From: Verrucomicrobia bacterium S94
GTDB lineage: Bacteria > Verrucomicrobiota > Kiritimatiellia > Kiritimatiellales > Pontiellaceae
Length of the DNA: 64,000 nt
Direction of reading: 5' to 3'
Assembly (NCBI GenBank): GCA_004299845.1
Contig: CP036201.1
Location: 3,286,001 to 3,350,000 of the forward strand
The position numbers were made by a program, and so were the translations under genes. Shown here piece after piece: positions 4,136 through 63,422 of the stretch. Under the pieces are notes generated by a model. That model was given only the letters and a program-made list of their open reading frames with translations. It was not told where the DNA came from and made no database searches. The first letter of the stretch is position 1. Every line of letters begins with the position of its first letter.

Positions 4136-4966
4136 GGGCGTGTTAACACAACGGAAGCATGTCCACAGTCAGGGCGAAGTGGATGAACGCACAGAACATT
4201 ACGTCGAGTTTCTCGAAGCGGGAGAAGATTCGACGGAATCCTTTTAAGCGGCGGAACAGGCGCTCCACTTCATTGCGCCGCTTGTACATTTCCTTGTCGT
4301 ATTCCCAAGGTTCAAGTCGATTGGCCTTGGGCGGCACAACGGGAGTGAGGTCAAGATCGAACACCAGCTGCCGGGTTTCATCTCCTTCGTAGGCCTTATC
4401 CATCAATACATTGCAAATGCCTTCAGGGCGATCCTCGCCCCAGCTGGCCAGTAGTTTACGACCTTCCGGACCATCACCGGCTTGTCCCGGGGAAAGGGAG
4501 AAATCCAGTGCGATCCGGGCGTTGGCGGCGATCAAATGGATCTTGGTAGTCCAGCCACCACGGGACTTTCCTATGGATTGTTTGCCGTTTTTTTTAATGC
4601 GCCGGTTCCGTCGGGATGCACCTTGATCGAGGTGCTGTCGATGGACACCGCTTCAAGGTTGATCTTCACGAGCTGCTGTTTCTGCAGTTCATCGAACACG
4701 TTTGCGAGAACGCCTTTTTTTGCCCAGCGGTTCATGCGGGTGTAAATGGTGTGCCAGTTTCCAAAGCGAGAGGGGAGTCCGCGCCACTTGCAGCCGTGCT
4801 CGGCCACATAGAGAATGGCGTTTAAAACCTCGATATTGGAAAGAGTTACGTTGCCTCGCTGCACCGGCAACACATGGGCGATTTTGTCGTACTGGGCTTC
4901 GGTTATTTTCATATAAAGATAGTACCAGACTTGTTTTATATTGCAAGCATAAGTGTTAACAGGCCC
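4136..4966 (-). mobile_element. IS5-family (IS427-type) insertion sequence, apparently complete
   Basis: The 831-base element is bounded by 14-base terminal inverted repeats: GGGCGTGTTAACAC at 4136-4149 and, read on the other strand, GGGCCTGTTAACAC at 4953-4966 (13 of 14 identical). Both sides are flanked by TA (4134-4135 and 4967-4968), the two-base target duplication usual for the IS427 subgroup. It encodes one transposase in two frames joined by an A8 slippage site. Sharp ends and an undamaged DDE triad suggest a recent or still mobile copy. It sits between the MFS gene and the hybrid kinase without breaking either. Confidence 0.9.
4143..4912 (-). CDS. IS5-family transposase made by programmed -1 frameshift
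   Basis: Two overlapping frames make one DDE transposase. The upstream frame (4571-4912, 113 codons) holds the helix-turn-helix-like IS5 N-terminal domain (LPVQRGNVTLSN, HGCKWRGLP) and the first Asp (SIDSTSIK). The downstream frame continues from a run of eight A on the coding strand (4588-4595). A -1 slip there yields NGKQSIGKSRGGWTTK and then enters the 4143-4535 frame. That frame carries the second Asp (NVLMDKAYEG) and the signature Y-2-R-3-E-6-K in YKRRNEVERLFRRLK. The slip position and joined protein match known IS427-type elements; that slippage occurs here is inferred. Confidence 0.85.
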
Positions 4967-10135: not shown

Positions 10136-11476
10136 TCAGCTGCGTTTTAAGGAAAGCATGGAGCGGCCTTTTTTGTACAACGTGAGGGTGCCGGTGGATT
10201 CGGAGAGCACCAGCGAAAGCGCATTCGTGCAGGCAGTGATCGCCTGCCCGGCGGTGTGCCGGGCCCCGAGGCCGCCCTGCAGCTGATCGCCCATCACTTC
10301 GGCCCGAATGAAACTTCCGGCCGACATAATGACGCCGTCGCCGCGAATCACAAAGGCCCCGTCGATATGCGCAAACTCTTTGATGGTTTCAGCCAGACTT
10401 GGATCGAGAATATTTTTTTCGTGATCACTGTAGCCCTTGAAGGGATTAATGACCATCTGATGGCATTGATGCTGCACCTGTTCGTAGTCTCCGACCACAA
10501 ACAGGGTTCCGATGGGTTTTCCTTCGCGGCCTTCGCGCGCGAGCTCCGAAGCCAGCGTGAAAATACGCAGCAGCACCTGAAAATCTATAGTCCCGGATGC
10601 AAGCTCTTCGCGCAGCGTAAGCGGTACACGCAGATCTTCGTTGACGTTGAGCAGGCGGATGGTATCAAGCCGCGCGGCATCGGAACTTCCATAGAGACAG
10701 ACAATGGTGTCGTCGGGACGCAGCAGATTCCGGGAAAGAATGAGCAGCAGAGCAAAGTCGAGTGCGTGGCGTGGCAGTACGCCATGAAGCGGAATTTCAA
10801 AAAGGTGGTCAAAAGGCCAATCGGGCGTATCAAGCTGCTGGTGGGGATTGGTAACCAGTAACGTTTTGCAGTGCCCCGGATACCTTTCCACGAAATCGAG
10901 CCCTGCCGGTTGATCAGCCATCACCAGCAGGCAGTCAGCCCCGGTTTTTTCCGCCATACTGCAGGCCGAGGCATAGACCGCTTCTGTATCAGCCTGCCGG
11001 TCGGGATCAATCGAAACACCATCTGATGTTACACATTGGAGCAGTGACCGATATAATGCTTCCGCACTTTGGGCCGTAAGCAGCGAACGTGGAACCGTCC
11101 GGCACTGAAAAGTCCGGGCCAGCATCGCCAGAACCGATAGAAAATCATGCCGGTCGGCTTCATCGCCGATCAGCAGAATAACCAATTGGATACTGGACTG
11201 ACTTGATGCCCCCCAGGAAATACCCTTCCGACTGAGCCCTACAGCAATCTTCGGCGATCCAATGCCCGGAAGCCGCGCATGCGGCAGTGCCAGCCAGTTA
11301 CTGACGTTTGTGCCAACATCGTTTTCCCGAATCAGCACGGCTTCGAGTATCGCTGTTTCATCAAGATGCGGCTCTGTTTCACAAAACAGATGCACCAGTT
11401 CACCGATAGCGGATTTCTCCGTTTCGCTCTGCAGCAGGCAAACCCGCCCGACATTCAAATAATGGGCCAATGGCAT
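10136..11476 (-). CDS. PTS EIIA domain / PK-like domain / diadenylate cyclase (CdaZ-like) fusion
   Basis: This 446-residue soluble protein has three parts. Residues 1-~150 look like a PTS EIIA type-2 (PtsN/fructose) domain, with the phospho-acceptor His66 in WLALPHARLPG. Residues ~160-325 resemble the pyruvate-kinase C-terminal-like domain found in CdaZ cyclases (AVYASACSMAEKTGADCLLV). Residues ~325-446 are a DAC (DisA_N) domain: GTLFVVGD, NPFKGY, the DGA motif at 372-374, GLGARHTAG with Arg406-His407-Thr408, and VLSESTGT. Such domains join two ATP into cyclic di-AMP. The fusion suggests that phosphorylation of the EIIA domain by a PTS or PTS-Ntr chain could tune c-di-AMP production. The domain calls are by eye; activity and control are inferred. 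A separate CdaA lies at 62.5-63.4 kb. Confidence 0.75.
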   Translation of the reverse strand: MPLAHYLNVGRVCLLQSETEKSAIGELVHLFCETEPHLDETAILEAVLIRENDVGTNVSNWLALPHARLPGIGSPKIAVGLSRKGISWGASSQSSIQLVILLIGDEADRHDFLSVLAMLARTFQCRTVPRSLLTAQSAEALYRSLLQCVTSDGVSIDPDRQADTEAVYASACSMAEKTGADCLLVMADQPAGLDFVERYPGHCKTLLVTNPHQQLDTPDWPFDHLFEIPLHGVLPRHALDFALLLILSRNLLRPDDTIVCLYGSSDAARLDTIRLLNVNEDLRVPLTLREELASGTIDFQVLLRIFTLASELAREGREGKPIGTLFVVGDYEQVQHQCHQMVINPFKGYSDHEKNILDPSLAETIKEFAHIDGAFVIRGDGVIMSAGSFIRAEVMGDQLQGGLGARHTAGQAITACTNALSLVLSESTGTLTLYKKGRSMLSLKRS

Positions 11477-11567: not shown

Positions 11568-12755
11568 TCAGGTACGTCTTTTTGCCTTTTGAAAGATCGC
11601 GCCTGCAATCAATAAAGCGAGGCCGGGCAAAAGCCAGACGGACTGACGTTCGATGAAACCCATCCAGAAAAACGGAGAGGTGCAGAGCATCGCGATCCAC
11701 ATGACCCACGGGGATGCTGCCGCTTTTTTCCGGACAATGACGCGATAAAGCATATACGCAGGAAAAATCAGACCATACGCGCTCATGAAGAGGCGGTAAA
11801 CGATTTCACCGGCAGTCAGGCCCTGATACATCGGAAGTTCCGGCACGAAAGCCCCGATCATTCCGGCCGGGATTAAAAGCACAGCCAGTCCTTTTTTTCG
11901 GGCACCAATACCTGGAAGAGTCCGGATGCGGTCGAGATGTACGGTAACGGTAAAGAACCACTGGCAGATAATATGGAGCAGAATTCCGATTGCAAGCAGC
12001 GGACTTAGCGGAAATATAATCCGCTCTCCATCTATTACCGTATTGAAAATACCCGCGTAACGGGTCGTCAGAAAAATCATAAACGGAAAAAAGAGCACAA
12101 AACCGATGGTGAACCCGAGCCGGCCTTTGGATGCGGTCTCCAGCTTCTGCCGGGCATGGTGAAAAGTGACATCGAGATAGGGACACAGCAGAAATCCGAA
12201 GAACATGACCGGCAGCATCCGGAACGGTTCCGCGGATGGTTTGGCGGATTGCACCAGCGTCGCATTAGCACTCTGGAGGCCGGATGAAAAAAACGTCCCC
12301 AGCAATACCGTCAGACTGAGCGCAAGCAATACCAATGCGGATTTCTGTACACTCCCGCGAAACAGCGCCCAGCCGATGAGTAATACGAAAGCACCGAAAA
12401 CACCAAAACCGCCGGCAATCCAGATTCCAGGAATCTCAAGTCCCCTAAAAAGCAACCGGAATAGCCAGCTGATCCAGTAGCAATGAAACGCCAATGTAAT
12501 AGCGGAAAACCACCAGACAGCCCCTGAATGTTTTTCAACAAAACGAACCGAATCAGAACCCGTTTTTATTACCCAGCCCATCGCGGCCGCGCCTATGACA
12601 TTGGGCACCGCAAAAATCAGATAGCCGGGCCATCCCATTTCACGCAAAAGCAGAACCGGCAAAAACATGCCGATACACCAGGTCCACGAGCAGGCAAGAT
12701 AGGCGCCCCACCGTATGGAATCACGTACCGAAGCTGGCCCGGCTGTTATGCTCAT
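11568..12755 (-). CDS. Polytopic membrane protein of unknown function
   Basis: This 395-residue protein has about 10-11 hydrophobic segments and short loops rich in positive residues, so it sits in the inner membrane. I do not recognise a family motif. The first segment region (WGAYLACSWTWCIGMFLPVLLL) and paired segments later have the look of a carrier or sensor rather than an enzyme. Its start overlaps the stop of the upstream hotdog-like gene by four bases (ATGA), so the two are translated together. The EIIA-cyclase gene starts 91 bases downstream on the same strand. Confidence 0.7.
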   Translation of the reverse strand: MSITAGPASVRDSIRWGAYLACSWTWCIGMFLPVLLLREMGWPGYLIFAVPNVIGAAAMGWVIKTGSDSVRFVEKHSGAVWWFSAITLAFHCYWISWLFRLLFRGLEIPGIWIAGGFGVFGAFVLLIGWALFRGSVQKSALVLLALSLTVLLGTFFSSGLQSANATLVQSAKPSAEPFRMLPVMFFGFLLCPYLDVTFHHARQKLETASKGRLGFTIGFVLFFPFMIFLTTRYAGIFNTVIDGERIIFPLSPLLAIGILLHIICQWFFTVTVHLDRIRTLPGIGARKKGLAVLLIPAGMIGAFVPELPMYQGLTAGEIVYRLFMSAYGLIFPAYMLYRVIVRKKAAASPWVMWIAMLCTSPFFWMGFIERQSVWLLPGLALLIAGAIFQKAKRRT

Positions 12756-13384
12756 TTGCTTTTTTTTCTGCGCAGCCTTTTGGCCTTGTGATGCGCCTTA
12801 GGCGTTACATGAAACGTTGCCGTACATCGGCCGACCCGCTTGGGCTTCGCCGGTTTCCCACCCACCATTCTCGGCCGGCTTCCGCGTACCAGTGCCTGAA
12901 CAATATCCATGCGAATGGCAATATTGAACTCTTTTCCCGTGGCCACCAGCTCATGGATATCGTCGAGCGGAGTCATCTGATATTCCGCCGGGCCCATGCA
13001 GGGGCGCAGAAATCGATAATCCAGATGTTTGCAAACGACGGTATAATCACCACCGCACACCTTGAAAATATAGTTTCCGCCGGCAATTTCTGAATTCCCC
13101 AGCAACGATGCGCCTGCCATGGCATTGTACCAGTTTTTATTAAACCGGCGGAAAGGCAGAATCGCCCGATGCTTCGTTCCATCCGACGCCATCGTCAATC
13201 CTGAATGAAAAGCATACGGAAGCCAGATCATGGAACACAAACGGTTCCAGAACAGGTTTCGGGTGGAAAGTTTGGAAATATACGCATCCAGACGTTCATA
13301 TAACGTCAGTTTTTCTTCATGAATTTCGGGGGCTTCACTACGGGTGGTCTCTATTGTGTTTTCTTTATGATCAGGTTGTTCCAT
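12752..13384 (-). CDS. Hotdog-fold (DUF4442-like) protein
   Basis: The ATG at 13382-13384 is chosen; a TTG at 13405 would add seven residues. Residues ~50-160 carry a pattern like DUF4442/PaaI-type hotdog proteins: RAILPFRRFNKNWYNAMAGA, then an Asn/Glu stretch around GNSEIAGGN and the strand DYTVVCKHLDYRFLRPCMGP. The C-terminal ~40 residues are very basic (RVGRC..KAHHKAKRLRRKKSK), which may bind nucleic acid or membrane lipid. Hotdog proteins commonly hydrolyse or bind acyl-CoA. Here the assignment is tentative and the substrate unknown. It is coupled by a four-base overlap to the membrane protein that follows. Confidence 0.55.
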   Translation of the reverse strand: MEQPDHKENTIETTRSEAPEIHEEKLTLYERLDAYISKLSTRNLFWNRLCSMIWLPYAFHSGLTMASDGTKHRAILPFRRFNKNWYNAMAGASLLGNSEIAGGNYIFKVCGGDYTVVCKHLDYRFLRPCMGPAEYQMTPLDDIHELVATGKEFNIAIRMDIVQALVRGSRPRMVGGKPAKPKRVGRCTATFHVTPKAHHKAKRLRRKKSK

Positions 13385-13763
13385 GGAATTCTTTTCGAGC
13401 TTCAAAACCGCACCGTTCTTCCGGCGGTACTACCGTTTATTGATCCGGTTTATTCATAATTTTTCGGTGAACGTTGATATTCGCAGACAAAAGCTTCGCA
13501 GTAAACAAAGAGCGCATACCTAATTTTTAATCTTCTTCCACCATTCCGGTTCATCCGCTCAACCCCCTGCTTTGCACAAAATATTTTTCCCGGATTTATT
13601 AATAAAAAGCGGTCCCCGCAAATGGCGCAAATCATCCTCTTTACAGGACCGGATACCAGCCTGTACCGCCGCGCTGTTTTGGCGGCTTCGGGGCCCTCAG
13701 GAAGCGGCGCGAGATGAAGCACATTCAAACTTCTTAACGCAGTGCTATTCCGGTCCCCACCCT
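13385..13763. other. Intergenic region, one doubtful small ORF
   Basis: This 379-base stretch lies between the DUF4442-like gene and the secreted TIM-barrel gene. A 92-codon minus-strand frame (13450-13728) contains a CAICGDRF..FCAK cysteine pattern that could be a zinc ribbon. It lacks a convincing ribosome binding site and I know no family like it, so I do not call it a gene. No terminator is evident. Confidence 0.4.
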
Positions 13764-61621: not shown

Positions 61622-62569
61622 CTACTTAACATTGGTAATTTCAACTTGAATGACACTTGGATCGGTTTTTATGGCCTGAACACCTTCAGGCAGATCAATT
61701 TTGACCGGTAATTCATAGAAGGCCGCTTCCGGAAGATCATGACAGTCGATATACGCAAACAGTTCTTCTTCGCTGAGTTTTTCAATCTGTTCTTTTCGTC
61801 CCTGCACGACAAGGCTTATATATTTCGGGTAGATGTCAATAATACGGTCTTCACCCGGGGATGAGACCACCCGGAGGGGAATTTTTTCAAATTCCGCCGT
61901 GCTGTTGCGTTCAACCAGTACCACTTCGATGGATACCCAGTCCGGGTCTACCGCCATTCGACCGACCAGCGGAAGAGCAATGGGTACACTTTCTTTAAAG
62001 GAGGCCTGTCGGTTCGTCAGATCGATTTTTTCAGTATGTATATTTTCCATACTGTCGAGCACCTGACGGGCACCTGCAACTTTTACCGATGCCGGTGTTG
62101 CTATAATTCTTTCTATTTCAATACCTTCGGGTAAATTTCCGGTGGTGGCCGCTTTTACCGGAAGCAGGCGTTCTCCTTTCTGGTCCATACGGACCACCAT
62201 TTCGGAAGGACTGAAACTGACAATTTTCGCGCCTGTAGGATTGCGCAGAAACGCGCCTGTAAGTTTAATGGTCATCTCTTCGCCTTGAACGGGGTTCTGA
62301 ACCGGAACCACAAGATGAAGCTGGTCGCTGTTCAGGTAGCGAATGTCCTCGCGCGAACCGCGGAATACAATATTCACCCGCTGCATCGATTTTTCCCAGA
62401 CCGCCCAGCCTGAAGGGGCTTCCACATCCACCGGGATGCCGGAAACTGAAACTTCAAACCCAATAGTTTTCCGGATACTCTGCCAGCCCAGAAAAGCGAG
62501 GACAAAGCAGAGAAGGATCAGAAAACGATCTTTCCAGAACTGATGCCAGGCGTTGGAAATTCTATTCAT
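61622..62569 (-). CDS. cdaR: YbbR/CdaR-like regulator of diadenylate cyclase
   Basis: YbbR proteins stand beside CdaA in the membrane and modulate c-di-AMP synthesis. The 315 residues start with one membrane helix (RFLILLCFVLAFLGWQSIRKTIG) and continue as three to four YbbR repeats outside the membrane (FEVSVSGIPVDVEAP, LRNPTGAKIVSFSPSEMVVR, IIATPASVKVAGARQVL, IPLRVVSSPGEDRIIDIYPKYISLVVQG). It overlaps cdaA by eight bases, as usual for the pair. Confidence 0.85.
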   Translation of the reverse strand: MNRISNAWHQFWKDRFLILLCFVLAFLGWQSIRKTIGFEVSVSGIPVDVEAPSGWAVWEKSMQRVNIVFRGSREDIRYLNSDQLHLVVPVQNPVQGEEMTIKLTGAFLRNPTGAKIVSFSPSEMVVRMDQKGERLLPVKAATTGNLPEGIEIERIIATPASVKVAGARQVLDSMENIHTEKIDLTNRQASFKESVPIALPLVGRMAVDPDWVSIEVVLVERNSTAEFEKIPLRVVSSPGEDRIIDIYPKYISLVVQGRKEQIEKLSEEELFAYIDCHDLPEAAFYELPVKIDLPEGVQAIKTDPSVIQVEITNVK

Positions 62570-63422
62570 CGTTTTTCTCCTCGCCGAAAGGCATCAGTAC
62601 GGTATCGGAGAGATCCGCTTCACCGGTCTGGATCTTTTCACGGAAGCGCGAGAGGCCGGTACGTTCCCGCCGCAGCATGGACTGCAGAACCCGCCGCAGT
62701 CGCTCCTCGCCAAGGCCTCGCCGCAGTCGACCGTTATAGGCAAGGGAAACAGCACCGGTCTCTTCTGAAACCACCACCACAATGGCATCCGTCTCTTCGG
62801 TAATGCCGATGGCTGCGCGGTGGCGTGTTCCGAGTGTTTTACTTAATTCCTCTTTCTGGGATAGGGGAAAAAGGCAGCCGGCTGCACAAATCCGGTCTCC
62901 GGAAATTATAACACCGCCGTCATGAAGCGGGGTATGCGGGAAGAAAATGGTGGAAAGCAGCTCGGCACTGACCGAACTGTTCATTTTCGTTCCGGTGTCC
63001 TGAATGGTGCGTGTACCGATTTCCCGTTCAATAGCAATAAGAGCTCCGATCTTACGTTTTGAAAGCAGTTTTACCGTCTGCATAATAGGTTCAATCAGAT
63101 TGCGCTGCGAAGCCATACTGTTGGTGCGCCACGGCTGACGGCCGAGCCGCGCCAGAACACGGCGTATTTCCGGCTGGAAAATCACCACAATTGCCAGTGT
63201 AATATAGAGCATCAGCTTCGAGAGAATCCAGTTAAGCACCTCCAGATGGCTGAGATTGGTGATGGCATTGAGTGCGCCGAAAAGGATGATAAGGCCGGTG
63301 AGAATGGCTGAGCCGCGTGTTCCTTTAAACAACCGGAAGATAAAATAGAGGAGGGCGGCGAGAATCAGAATCTCGACCCAGCCAAGCACATCAGGCAGTT
63401 CAAAAGCATCTTTCCATTGCAT
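62562..63422 (-). CDS. cdaA: Diadenylate cyclase CdaA
   Basis: CdaA makes cyclic di-AMP from two ATP at the membrane. The 286 residues start with three membrane helices (EILILAALLYFIFRLF, LTGLIILFGALNAI, LMLYITLAIVVIFQPEIRRVL) and then the DAC domain with HDGGVIISGDRI (Asp168) and the RHRAA motif GTRHRAAIG (198-206), then SEETGAVSLA. The first motif reads DGG in place of the common DGA. It overlaps folP by one base (TAATG) and cdaR by eight, the standard gene order. Confidence 0.93.
   Translation of the reverse strand: MQWKDAFELPDVLGWVEILILAALLYFIFRLFKGTRGSAILTGLIILFGALNAITNLSHLEVLNWILSKLMLYITLAIVVIFQPEIRRVLARLGRQPWRTNSMASQRNLIEPIMQTVKLLSKRKIGALIAIEREIGTRTIQDTGTKMNSSVSAELLSTIFFPHTPLHDGGVIISGDRICAAGCLFPLSQKEELSKTLGTRHRAAIGITEETDAIVVVVSEETGAVSLAYNGRLRRGLGEERLRRVLQSMLRRERTGLSRFREKIQTGEADLSDTVLMPFGEEKNDE

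What the first reader, a model, noticed from the sequence alone, without database searches (positions are those of the whole stretch)
10136..11476. PTS EIIA domain fused to a PK-like domain and a diadenylate cyclase
The protein has a PTS EIIA-type His66, a CdaZ-type PK-like centre and a DAC domain with DGA and GARHT motifs. A CdaA with CdaR lies in the same window, so the cell has two c-di-AMP sources, one apparently tied to sugar or nitrogen PTS status. I know no experimental study of this arrangement.
Basis: partly seen in the sequence, partly recalled or inferred. Interest (0 to 1): 0.7.

Follow-up and report, generated by a model that had tools for sequence, protein, structure and literature searches.

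The report
PTS-linked c-di-AMP synthase (EIIA-PK_C-DAC)
This gene encodes a predicted c-di-AMP-making enzyme carrying a built-in phosphorylation switch from the bacterial PEP phosphotransferase system; the same fused enzyme is found in several phyla and is the only predicted c-di-AMP source in most Opitutia genomes examined, but nobody appears to have tested it.

Summary
Window 10136-11476 (-) is one 446-aa protein: PTS EIIA_2 (15-146, His66), a pyruvate-kinase-C-like domain (165-282) and a diadenylate cyclase (313-438). HMMs, two AlphaFold models and fold searches support all three.

It is an old, widespread family, not a one-off. Full-length copies occur in 63 of 388 sampled genomes of the phylum and in Spirochaetes, Fibrobacteres/Chitinispirillia, Planctomycetes and others. 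His66 is kept in 134/141 proteins; the cyclase Asp-Gly and Arg-His are invariant. The CdaA metal-ligand Glu is an invariant Ser here.

The host (Pontiellaceae-like) also has CdaA/CdaR, but 55 of 65 checked genomes have this fusion as their only DAC. In Opitutia it lies directly behind nuoA (38 of 39 loci). The host PTS looks regulatory: two EIs (one GAF-EI-Ntr), two HPrs, ten EIIA domains, no PF02378 EIIC. So 'sugar status' is unlikely.

Best reading: a c-di-AMP synthase tuned by PEP-derived phosphorylation of His66. Synthesis and phosphorylation are inferred. Class DacD (Corrigan and Gruendling 2013), cited for the same taxa, may already list this architecture; I could not read that source, and found no experimental study.

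The parts
10136..11476 (-). EIIA-DacZ_P-DAC fusion gene, 446 aa, ATG start
11039..11434 (-). PTS EIIA type 2 domain, residues 15-146
   Evidence: Pfam PF00359 67.0 bits; fold match to EIIA-Ntr 1a6j Z 21.4
11279..11281 (-). codon of His66, predicted phospho-acceptor
   Evidence: kept in 134 of 141 relatives
10631..10984 (-). DacZ_P domain, pyruvate-kinase C-terminal (allosteric) fold, residues 165-282
   Evidence: Pfam PF21755 49.6 bits; PK_C domain of pyruvate kinases Z 13.9
10163..10540 (-). diadenylate cyclase domain, residues 313-438
   Evidence: Pfam PF02457 67.2 bits; DisA/CdaA Z about 15-16
10361..10363 (-). codon of Asp372 of the DGA motif
   Evidence: invariant in 141 relatives; aligns with the CdaA DGA
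10256..10261 (-). codons of Arg406-His407 (GxRHxxA motif)
   Evidence: invariant in 141 relatives; aligns with CdaA GTRHRAA
10196..10198 (-). codon of Ser427, where CdaA has the metal-binding Glu (SEE to SES)
   Evidence: Ser in 140 of 141, one gap; CdaA role from PMC7288161
11568..12755 (-). 395-aa multi-membrane-span protein upstream on the same strand (91 nt gap), no Pfam match; possible operon partner
   Evidence: same order in a congener, L115
62562..63422 (-). CdaA, the second predicted diadenylate cyclase of the genome
   Evidence: TIGR00159 240.7 bits, cut-off 188.8; CdaA_N and DAC
61622..62569 (-). YbbR/CdaR homologue next to cdaA
   Evidence: PF07949 72.4 bits

Best explanation
The protein is a soluble DacZ-type diadenylate cyclase that joins two ATP into c-di-AMP, with two stacked input domains. 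EI (or EI-Ntr) takes phosphate from PEP, HPr passes it to His66 of the N-terminal EIIA domain, and the phosphorylation state, relayed through the pyruvate-kinase-C-like domain (which may also bind a metabolite), changes how two DAC domains meet and so changes the c-di-AMP level. Output: the PEP/pyruvate (energy and nitrogen) state of the cell is turned into c-di-AMP, alongside direct EIIA control of an ion antiporter and an amino-acid permease that carry EIIA domains of their own. The unphosphorylated form is probably the active one. Shown here: the architecture, its conservation, and the presence of the donor proteins, of a PgpH-like phosphodiesterase and of other EIIA proteins. Inferred: catalysis, phosphorylation of His66, the direction of control, the physiological output.
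For: Three domains over Pfam cut-offs and matching folds. In the EIIA domain R50, E51, P65 and H66 are among the most conserved columns, H66 in 134/141. Cyclase D372, G373, R406 and H407 are 141/141. In 55 of 65 genomes this is the only DAC, and a PgpH-type (7TMR-HDED) protein is present in 27 of 32, own genome included, which fits real c-di-AMP turnover. EI and HPr are in all 66 genomes; the own genome has EI, GAF-EI-Ntr and HPr, ten EIIA domains, some on a Na/H exchanger-type protein, CBS protein and amino-acid permease, and no PF02378 EIIC. In two congeners the gene sits between an EIIA-zinc-ribbon gene and a permease-EIIA gene, in one with EI next door. His66 is lost in four genomes (L111-L114) where the DAC motif stays and the fusion is the sole DAC, so phosphorylation is unlikely to be needed for basal activity there.
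Against: No biochemistry. The invariant Ser at the CdaA metal-ligand Glu, A/S at its Thr and T/A at the third residue of RHR could mean altered metal use or lower activity. EI and HPr presence has no control sample, so it shows possibility, not association. His66 loss, with at least five changes of state on the tree, shows the switch is dispensable in some lineages. The neighbours in the window are uninformative. The direction of control rests on one indirect argument.
Confidence: 0.6

Rival explanations
1. The protein is an active c-di-AMP synthase, but the real input is a metabolite bound by the pyruvate-kinase-C-like domain (as FBP, AMP or amino acids bind pyruvate kinases); the EIIA domain only docks the enzyme to HPr/EI or to partners.
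For: PK_C fold match Z 13.9, best hit an AMP-bound pyruvate kinase; His66 lost in several lineages while the middle and DAC domains stay; EIIA-less DacZ_P-DAC proteins exist (L100, L104).
Against: His66 with R50/E51 is kept in 95% of proteins over several phyla, more than most columns of the domain; the DacZ_P domain is no more conserved than EIIA.
Confidence: 0.25
2. The fusion works the other way round: c-di-AMP or ATP state of the DAC/PK_C part gates the EIIA domain, which acts as a regulatory EIIA on transporters or on other PTS proteins.
For: PTS-Ntr EIIA proteins act on targets by direct binding (PMC13104625); the gene lies beside an EIIA-bearing permease in two congeners.
Against: In 55 of 65 genomes the DAC is the only one, so its cyclase output cannot be a side role; the DAC is the most conserved domain.
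Confidence: 0.08
3. In the window's lineage, where CdaA is also present, the fusion is a weak or redundant cyclase under relaxed selection, kept from a horizontally acquired or anciently inherited copy.
For: Only 4 of 28 genomes of the genus have it, all with CdaA; the clade groups loosely with Spirochaete and Kiritimatiellae sequences on a long stem; T408/G410 replace the usual A/A.
Against: DGA, Arg406-His407 and His66 are intact in all four congeners at 63-81% identity.
Confidence: 0.12

Closest known systems
DacZ / DacY-CdaZ diadenylate cyclases (Haloferax volcanii DacZ, Methanocaldococcus CdaZ)
   Same: PK_C-fold domain followed by a DAC; DacZ_P and DAC models match; NF041371 aligns over residues 223-443. 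H. volcanii DacZ makes c-di-AMP with Mn2+ (PMC6741144).
   Different: Has an extra N-terminal EIIA domain; scores 116.5 against an NF041371 cut-off of 430, so it is not that equivalog.
DacD class of Corrigan and Gruendling 2013 (as cited in PMC6741144)
   Same: Its listed representatives are Lacunisphaera, Puniceicoccaceae, Coraliomargarita and Opitutae, i.e. the group in which this fusion is usually the sole DAC.
   Different: The source could not be read, so its domain content was not compared.
PTS-Ntr EIIA (PtsN)
   Same: Fold (Z 21.4), phospho-His site, probable regulatory use without transport; GAF-EI-Ntr present.
   Different: Fused to a cyclase instead of acting by binding separate targets such as TrkA, YcgO or KdpD (PMC13104625).
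CdaA / DisA
   Same: DAC fold and the DGA and GxRH motifs.
   Different: No membrane or DNA-binding part; SES in place of SEE; RHT/RHA in place of RHR.

Membership tests
DAC (diadenylate cyclase) superfamily | PF02457 match over cut-off and DAC fold | tested here: met
   67.2 bits vs 27; Z about 15-16 to DisA/CdaA
DAC (diadenylate cyclase) superfamily | DGA and GxRH catalytic motifs | tested here: met
   D372, G373, R406, H407 in 141/141
CdaA/DisA-type DAC (consensus of characterised members) | (V/I)SEE motif with metal-binding Glu | tested here: not met
   SES in the window; Ser427 in 140/141; motif from PMC7288161
DAC (diadenylate cyclase) superfamily | c-di-AMP synthesis | not testable with these tools
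   needs a biochemical assay
PTS EIIA type 2 | PF00359 match and fold | tested here: met
   67.0 bits vs 27; EIIA-Ntr Z 21.4
PTS EIIA type 2 | phospho-acceptor His with the RE...PH signature | tested here: met
   R50, E51, P65, H66
PTS EIIA type 2 | accepts phosphate from HPr | not testable with these tools
   EI and HPr genes are present
DacZ/CdaZ class | PK_C-like domain directly before the DAC | tested here: met
   PF21755; PK_C fold Z 13.9
DacZ of haloarchaea (NF041371 equivalog) | NCBIfam NF041371 score over cut-off | tested here: not met
   116.5 bits vs 430
DacD class | attached-domain definition of Corrigan and Gruendling 2013 | not testable with these tools
   paper not held; same taxa named in PMC6741144

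The most novel reading that the evidence does not exclude
A PEP-driven phosphorelay directly sets the level of c-di-AMP: PTS phosphorylation of a fused EIIA switches the only c-di-AMP synthase of most Opitutia, and its operon with nuoA ties c-di-AMP to respiratory complex I and the proton-motive force. This would be a c-di-AMP input signal not described in the papers I could read.
Probability: 0.4. Interest if true: 0.8.

Novelty: new variant of a known kind. Interest (0 to 1): 0.6.

Why it matters
What signals control c-di-AMP synthesis is poorly known. A cyclase with a PTS phosphorylation domain makes a direct, easily tested link between the PEP/pyruvate state and a second messenger of ion and osmotic balance. 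Regulatory PTS and c-di-AMP both act on K+ homeostasis in other bacteria (PMC13104625, PMC7900238), and here the two are one protein. The conserved nuoA neighbour in Opitutia adds a possible tie to respiration. Because it is the sole predicted c-di-AMP source in many Opitutia, a cultured member can be tested genetically.

Tried and rejected
First genome-contig scan with the single sequence found nothing; the alignment scan worked. No ydaO-type c-di-AMP riboswitch (RF00379) in 28 genomes of the genus. Idea that genomes without His66 had lost EI/HPr: rejected, both are present in all 66. Idea of a sugar-transporting PTS: no PF02378 EIIC in 19 of 20 genomes; other EIIC families were not searched. 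Idea that window neighbours show the function: the two upstream genes and the 361-aa gene have no Pfam match. NuoA link for the window genus: it has no nuoA. No single neighbour is shared by the copies outside Opitutia. A regex look for a NuoB-like motif in ORFs of the fetched loci found none, a weak check. The library papers on DAC classes I opened do not describe the fusion; Corrigan and Gruendling 2013 and He 2020 are not held.

Full report
WHAT IS THERE. The minus-strand ORF at 10136-11476 starts with ATG and encodes 446 aa. Pfam finds PTS_EIIA_2 at 15-146 (67.0 bits), DacZ_P at 165-282 (49.6) and DAC at 313-438 (67.2), all over their curated cut-offs. AlphaFold2 on a 62-sequence alignment gave mean pLDDT 85.8 and pTM 0.62. 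VIA-align matches residues 1-151 to EIIA-Ntr (1a6j, Z 21.4, 148 aligned, 2.0 A) and 288-444 to DisA/CdaA (Z about 15-16). The middle domain folded alone (pLDDT 84.8) matches the C-terminal domain of pyruvate kinases (5ws9, Z 13.9, 121 aligned, 2.6 A).

ACTIVE SITES. His66 sits in the EIIA signature R50-E51-...-P65-H66. Across 141 full-length relatives His66 is kept in 134, R50 and E51 in 140; D372, G373, R406 and H407 in all. Aligned with Listeria CdaA, DGA and GxRH agree, but GTRHRAA becomes GARHTAG and SEETG becomes SESTG. The second Glu of SEE coordinates the metal in CdaA (PMC7288161). Here it is Ser in 140 of 141 (one gap), and EIIA-less DacZ_P-DAC proteins L100 and L104 also have SES (sequences). 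It is thus a trait of this cyclase lineage rather than damage; whether it changes metal use is untested. H. volcanii DacZ works only with manganese (PMC6741144); its own motif was not compared.

HOW WIDESPREAD. In the genus 4 of 28 genomes have the fusion. In the phylum 66 of 388 sampled genomes have a DacZ_P match, of which 63 encode the full three-domain protein of about 450 aa. A scan of 84,980 species genomes returned 80 full or near-full relatives (the cap), including Spirochaetes, Chitinispirillia/Fibrobacteres, Planctomycetes, Kiritimatiellae, one labelled Deltaproteobacteria and many Opitutia. The records of two congeners name the host group as Pontiellaceae. On a quick tree the window clade (3 rows) falls loosely among Spirochaete/Kiritimatiellae sequences and apart from a strongly supported Opitutia clade; deep forks are unsure.

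SOLE SOURCE OR SECOND SOURCE. The window genome has exactly two DACs, the fusion and CdaA, and CdaA sits next to a YbbR/CdaR gene. But 55 of 65 genomes with a DacZ_P-DAC protein have one DAC only, the fusion. A PgpH-type 7TMR-HDED protein is in 27 of 32 genomes, including the window's. So for most Opitutia examined the fusion is the predicted c-di-AMP synthase.

THE PTS. All 66 genomes have EI and HPr; there is no control sample, so this shows that a donor is available, not a correlation. The own genome has an HPr-EI pair and a 761-aa EI with a GAF domain, as in EI-Ntr, and ten EIIA_2 domains. Among these are EIIA joined to a Na/H-exchanger-type protein, to CBS, to a zinc ribbon and to an amino-acid permease. 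PF02378 EIIC is absent from it and from 19 of 20 genomes tested. This is the make-up of a regulatory PTS.

NEIGHBOURS. In congeners G001 and G009 the gene lies in a run of pntB-like, EIIA-zinc-ribbon, radical-SAM and permease-EIIA genes, with EI adjacent in G001 ('pntB-like' is my reading of the sequence). In Verrucomicrobiota of the Opitutia type, nuoA lies immediately upstream on the same strand: 54 of 67 distinct loci in the whole-genome set (three duplicate loci removed) and 38 of 39 Opitutia-type loci with enough upstream DNA in the named set, against 0 of 32 others. The two sets overlap. It is usually the only nuoA of the genome and a true Oxidored_q4 match. No literature link between c-di-AMP and complex I was found. 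The window genus has no nuoA.

A NATURAL TEST OF THE SWITCH. His66 is Tyr, Ser, Ser or Cys in L111-L114 and Gln in three Chitinivibrionales-type proteins, at least five changes of state on the tree. In L112 the EIIA match falls below its cut-off. In the four genomes of L111-L114 the fusion is still the only DAC with an intact cyclase motif. If that cyclase works, the unphosphorylatable state must be active, so phosphorylation is more likely to tune down than to switch on. This is inference.

MECHANISM. My best reading is PEP to EI to HPr to His66, relayed through the PK_C-like domain to DAC dimers. PTS-Ntr EIIA acts on K+ transporters and KdpD in other bacteria, in most cases in the unphosphorylated form (PMC13104625, PMC9239096); c-di-AMP controls K+ and osmotic balance (PMC7900238, abstract). 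The fusion would join these two controls.

NOVELTY. Braun et al. 2019 cite a bacterial DAC class DacD, with members in Lacunisphaera, Coraliomargarita, Puniceicoccaceae and Opitutae, from a classification by attached domains. That class is probably this architecture, but the original could not be read. I found no functional study. I rate it a new variant of a known kind (DacZ-type DAC plus EIIA), with the caution that it may already be listed by name.

Noticed in passing
whole-genome set and L080-L119, L145-L199 (Opitutia-type loci): nuoA, usually the only copy in the genome, sits directly upstream of the EIIA-DAC gene in nearly all Opitutia loci; no other nuo gene was recognised nearby (weak check).
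   Followed up: partly
L200-L209 (own genome): Ten EIIA_2 domains in one genome without PF02378 EIIC, several fused to an exchanger-type transporter, amino-acid permease, CBS or zinc-ribbon parts: an expanded regulatory PTS.
   Followed up: partly
L111, L112, L113, L114 and L130-L132: Lineages that lost the EIIA phospho-histidine (Y, S, S, C, Q) but kept the cyclase motif; a natural series for testing the role of phosphorylation.
   Followed up: partly
window 62562-63422: The CdaA of the window has DGG in place of DGA in the first catalytic motif.
   Followed up: no
window 4143-4912: Two adjacent ORFs (130 and 113 aa) look like a split IS5-type transposase by eye.
   Followed up: no
window 11568-13405: Two tightly overlapping genes (395-aa membrane protein, 217 aa) without Pfam match lie upstream of the fusion and are kept in a congener.
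   Followed up: no
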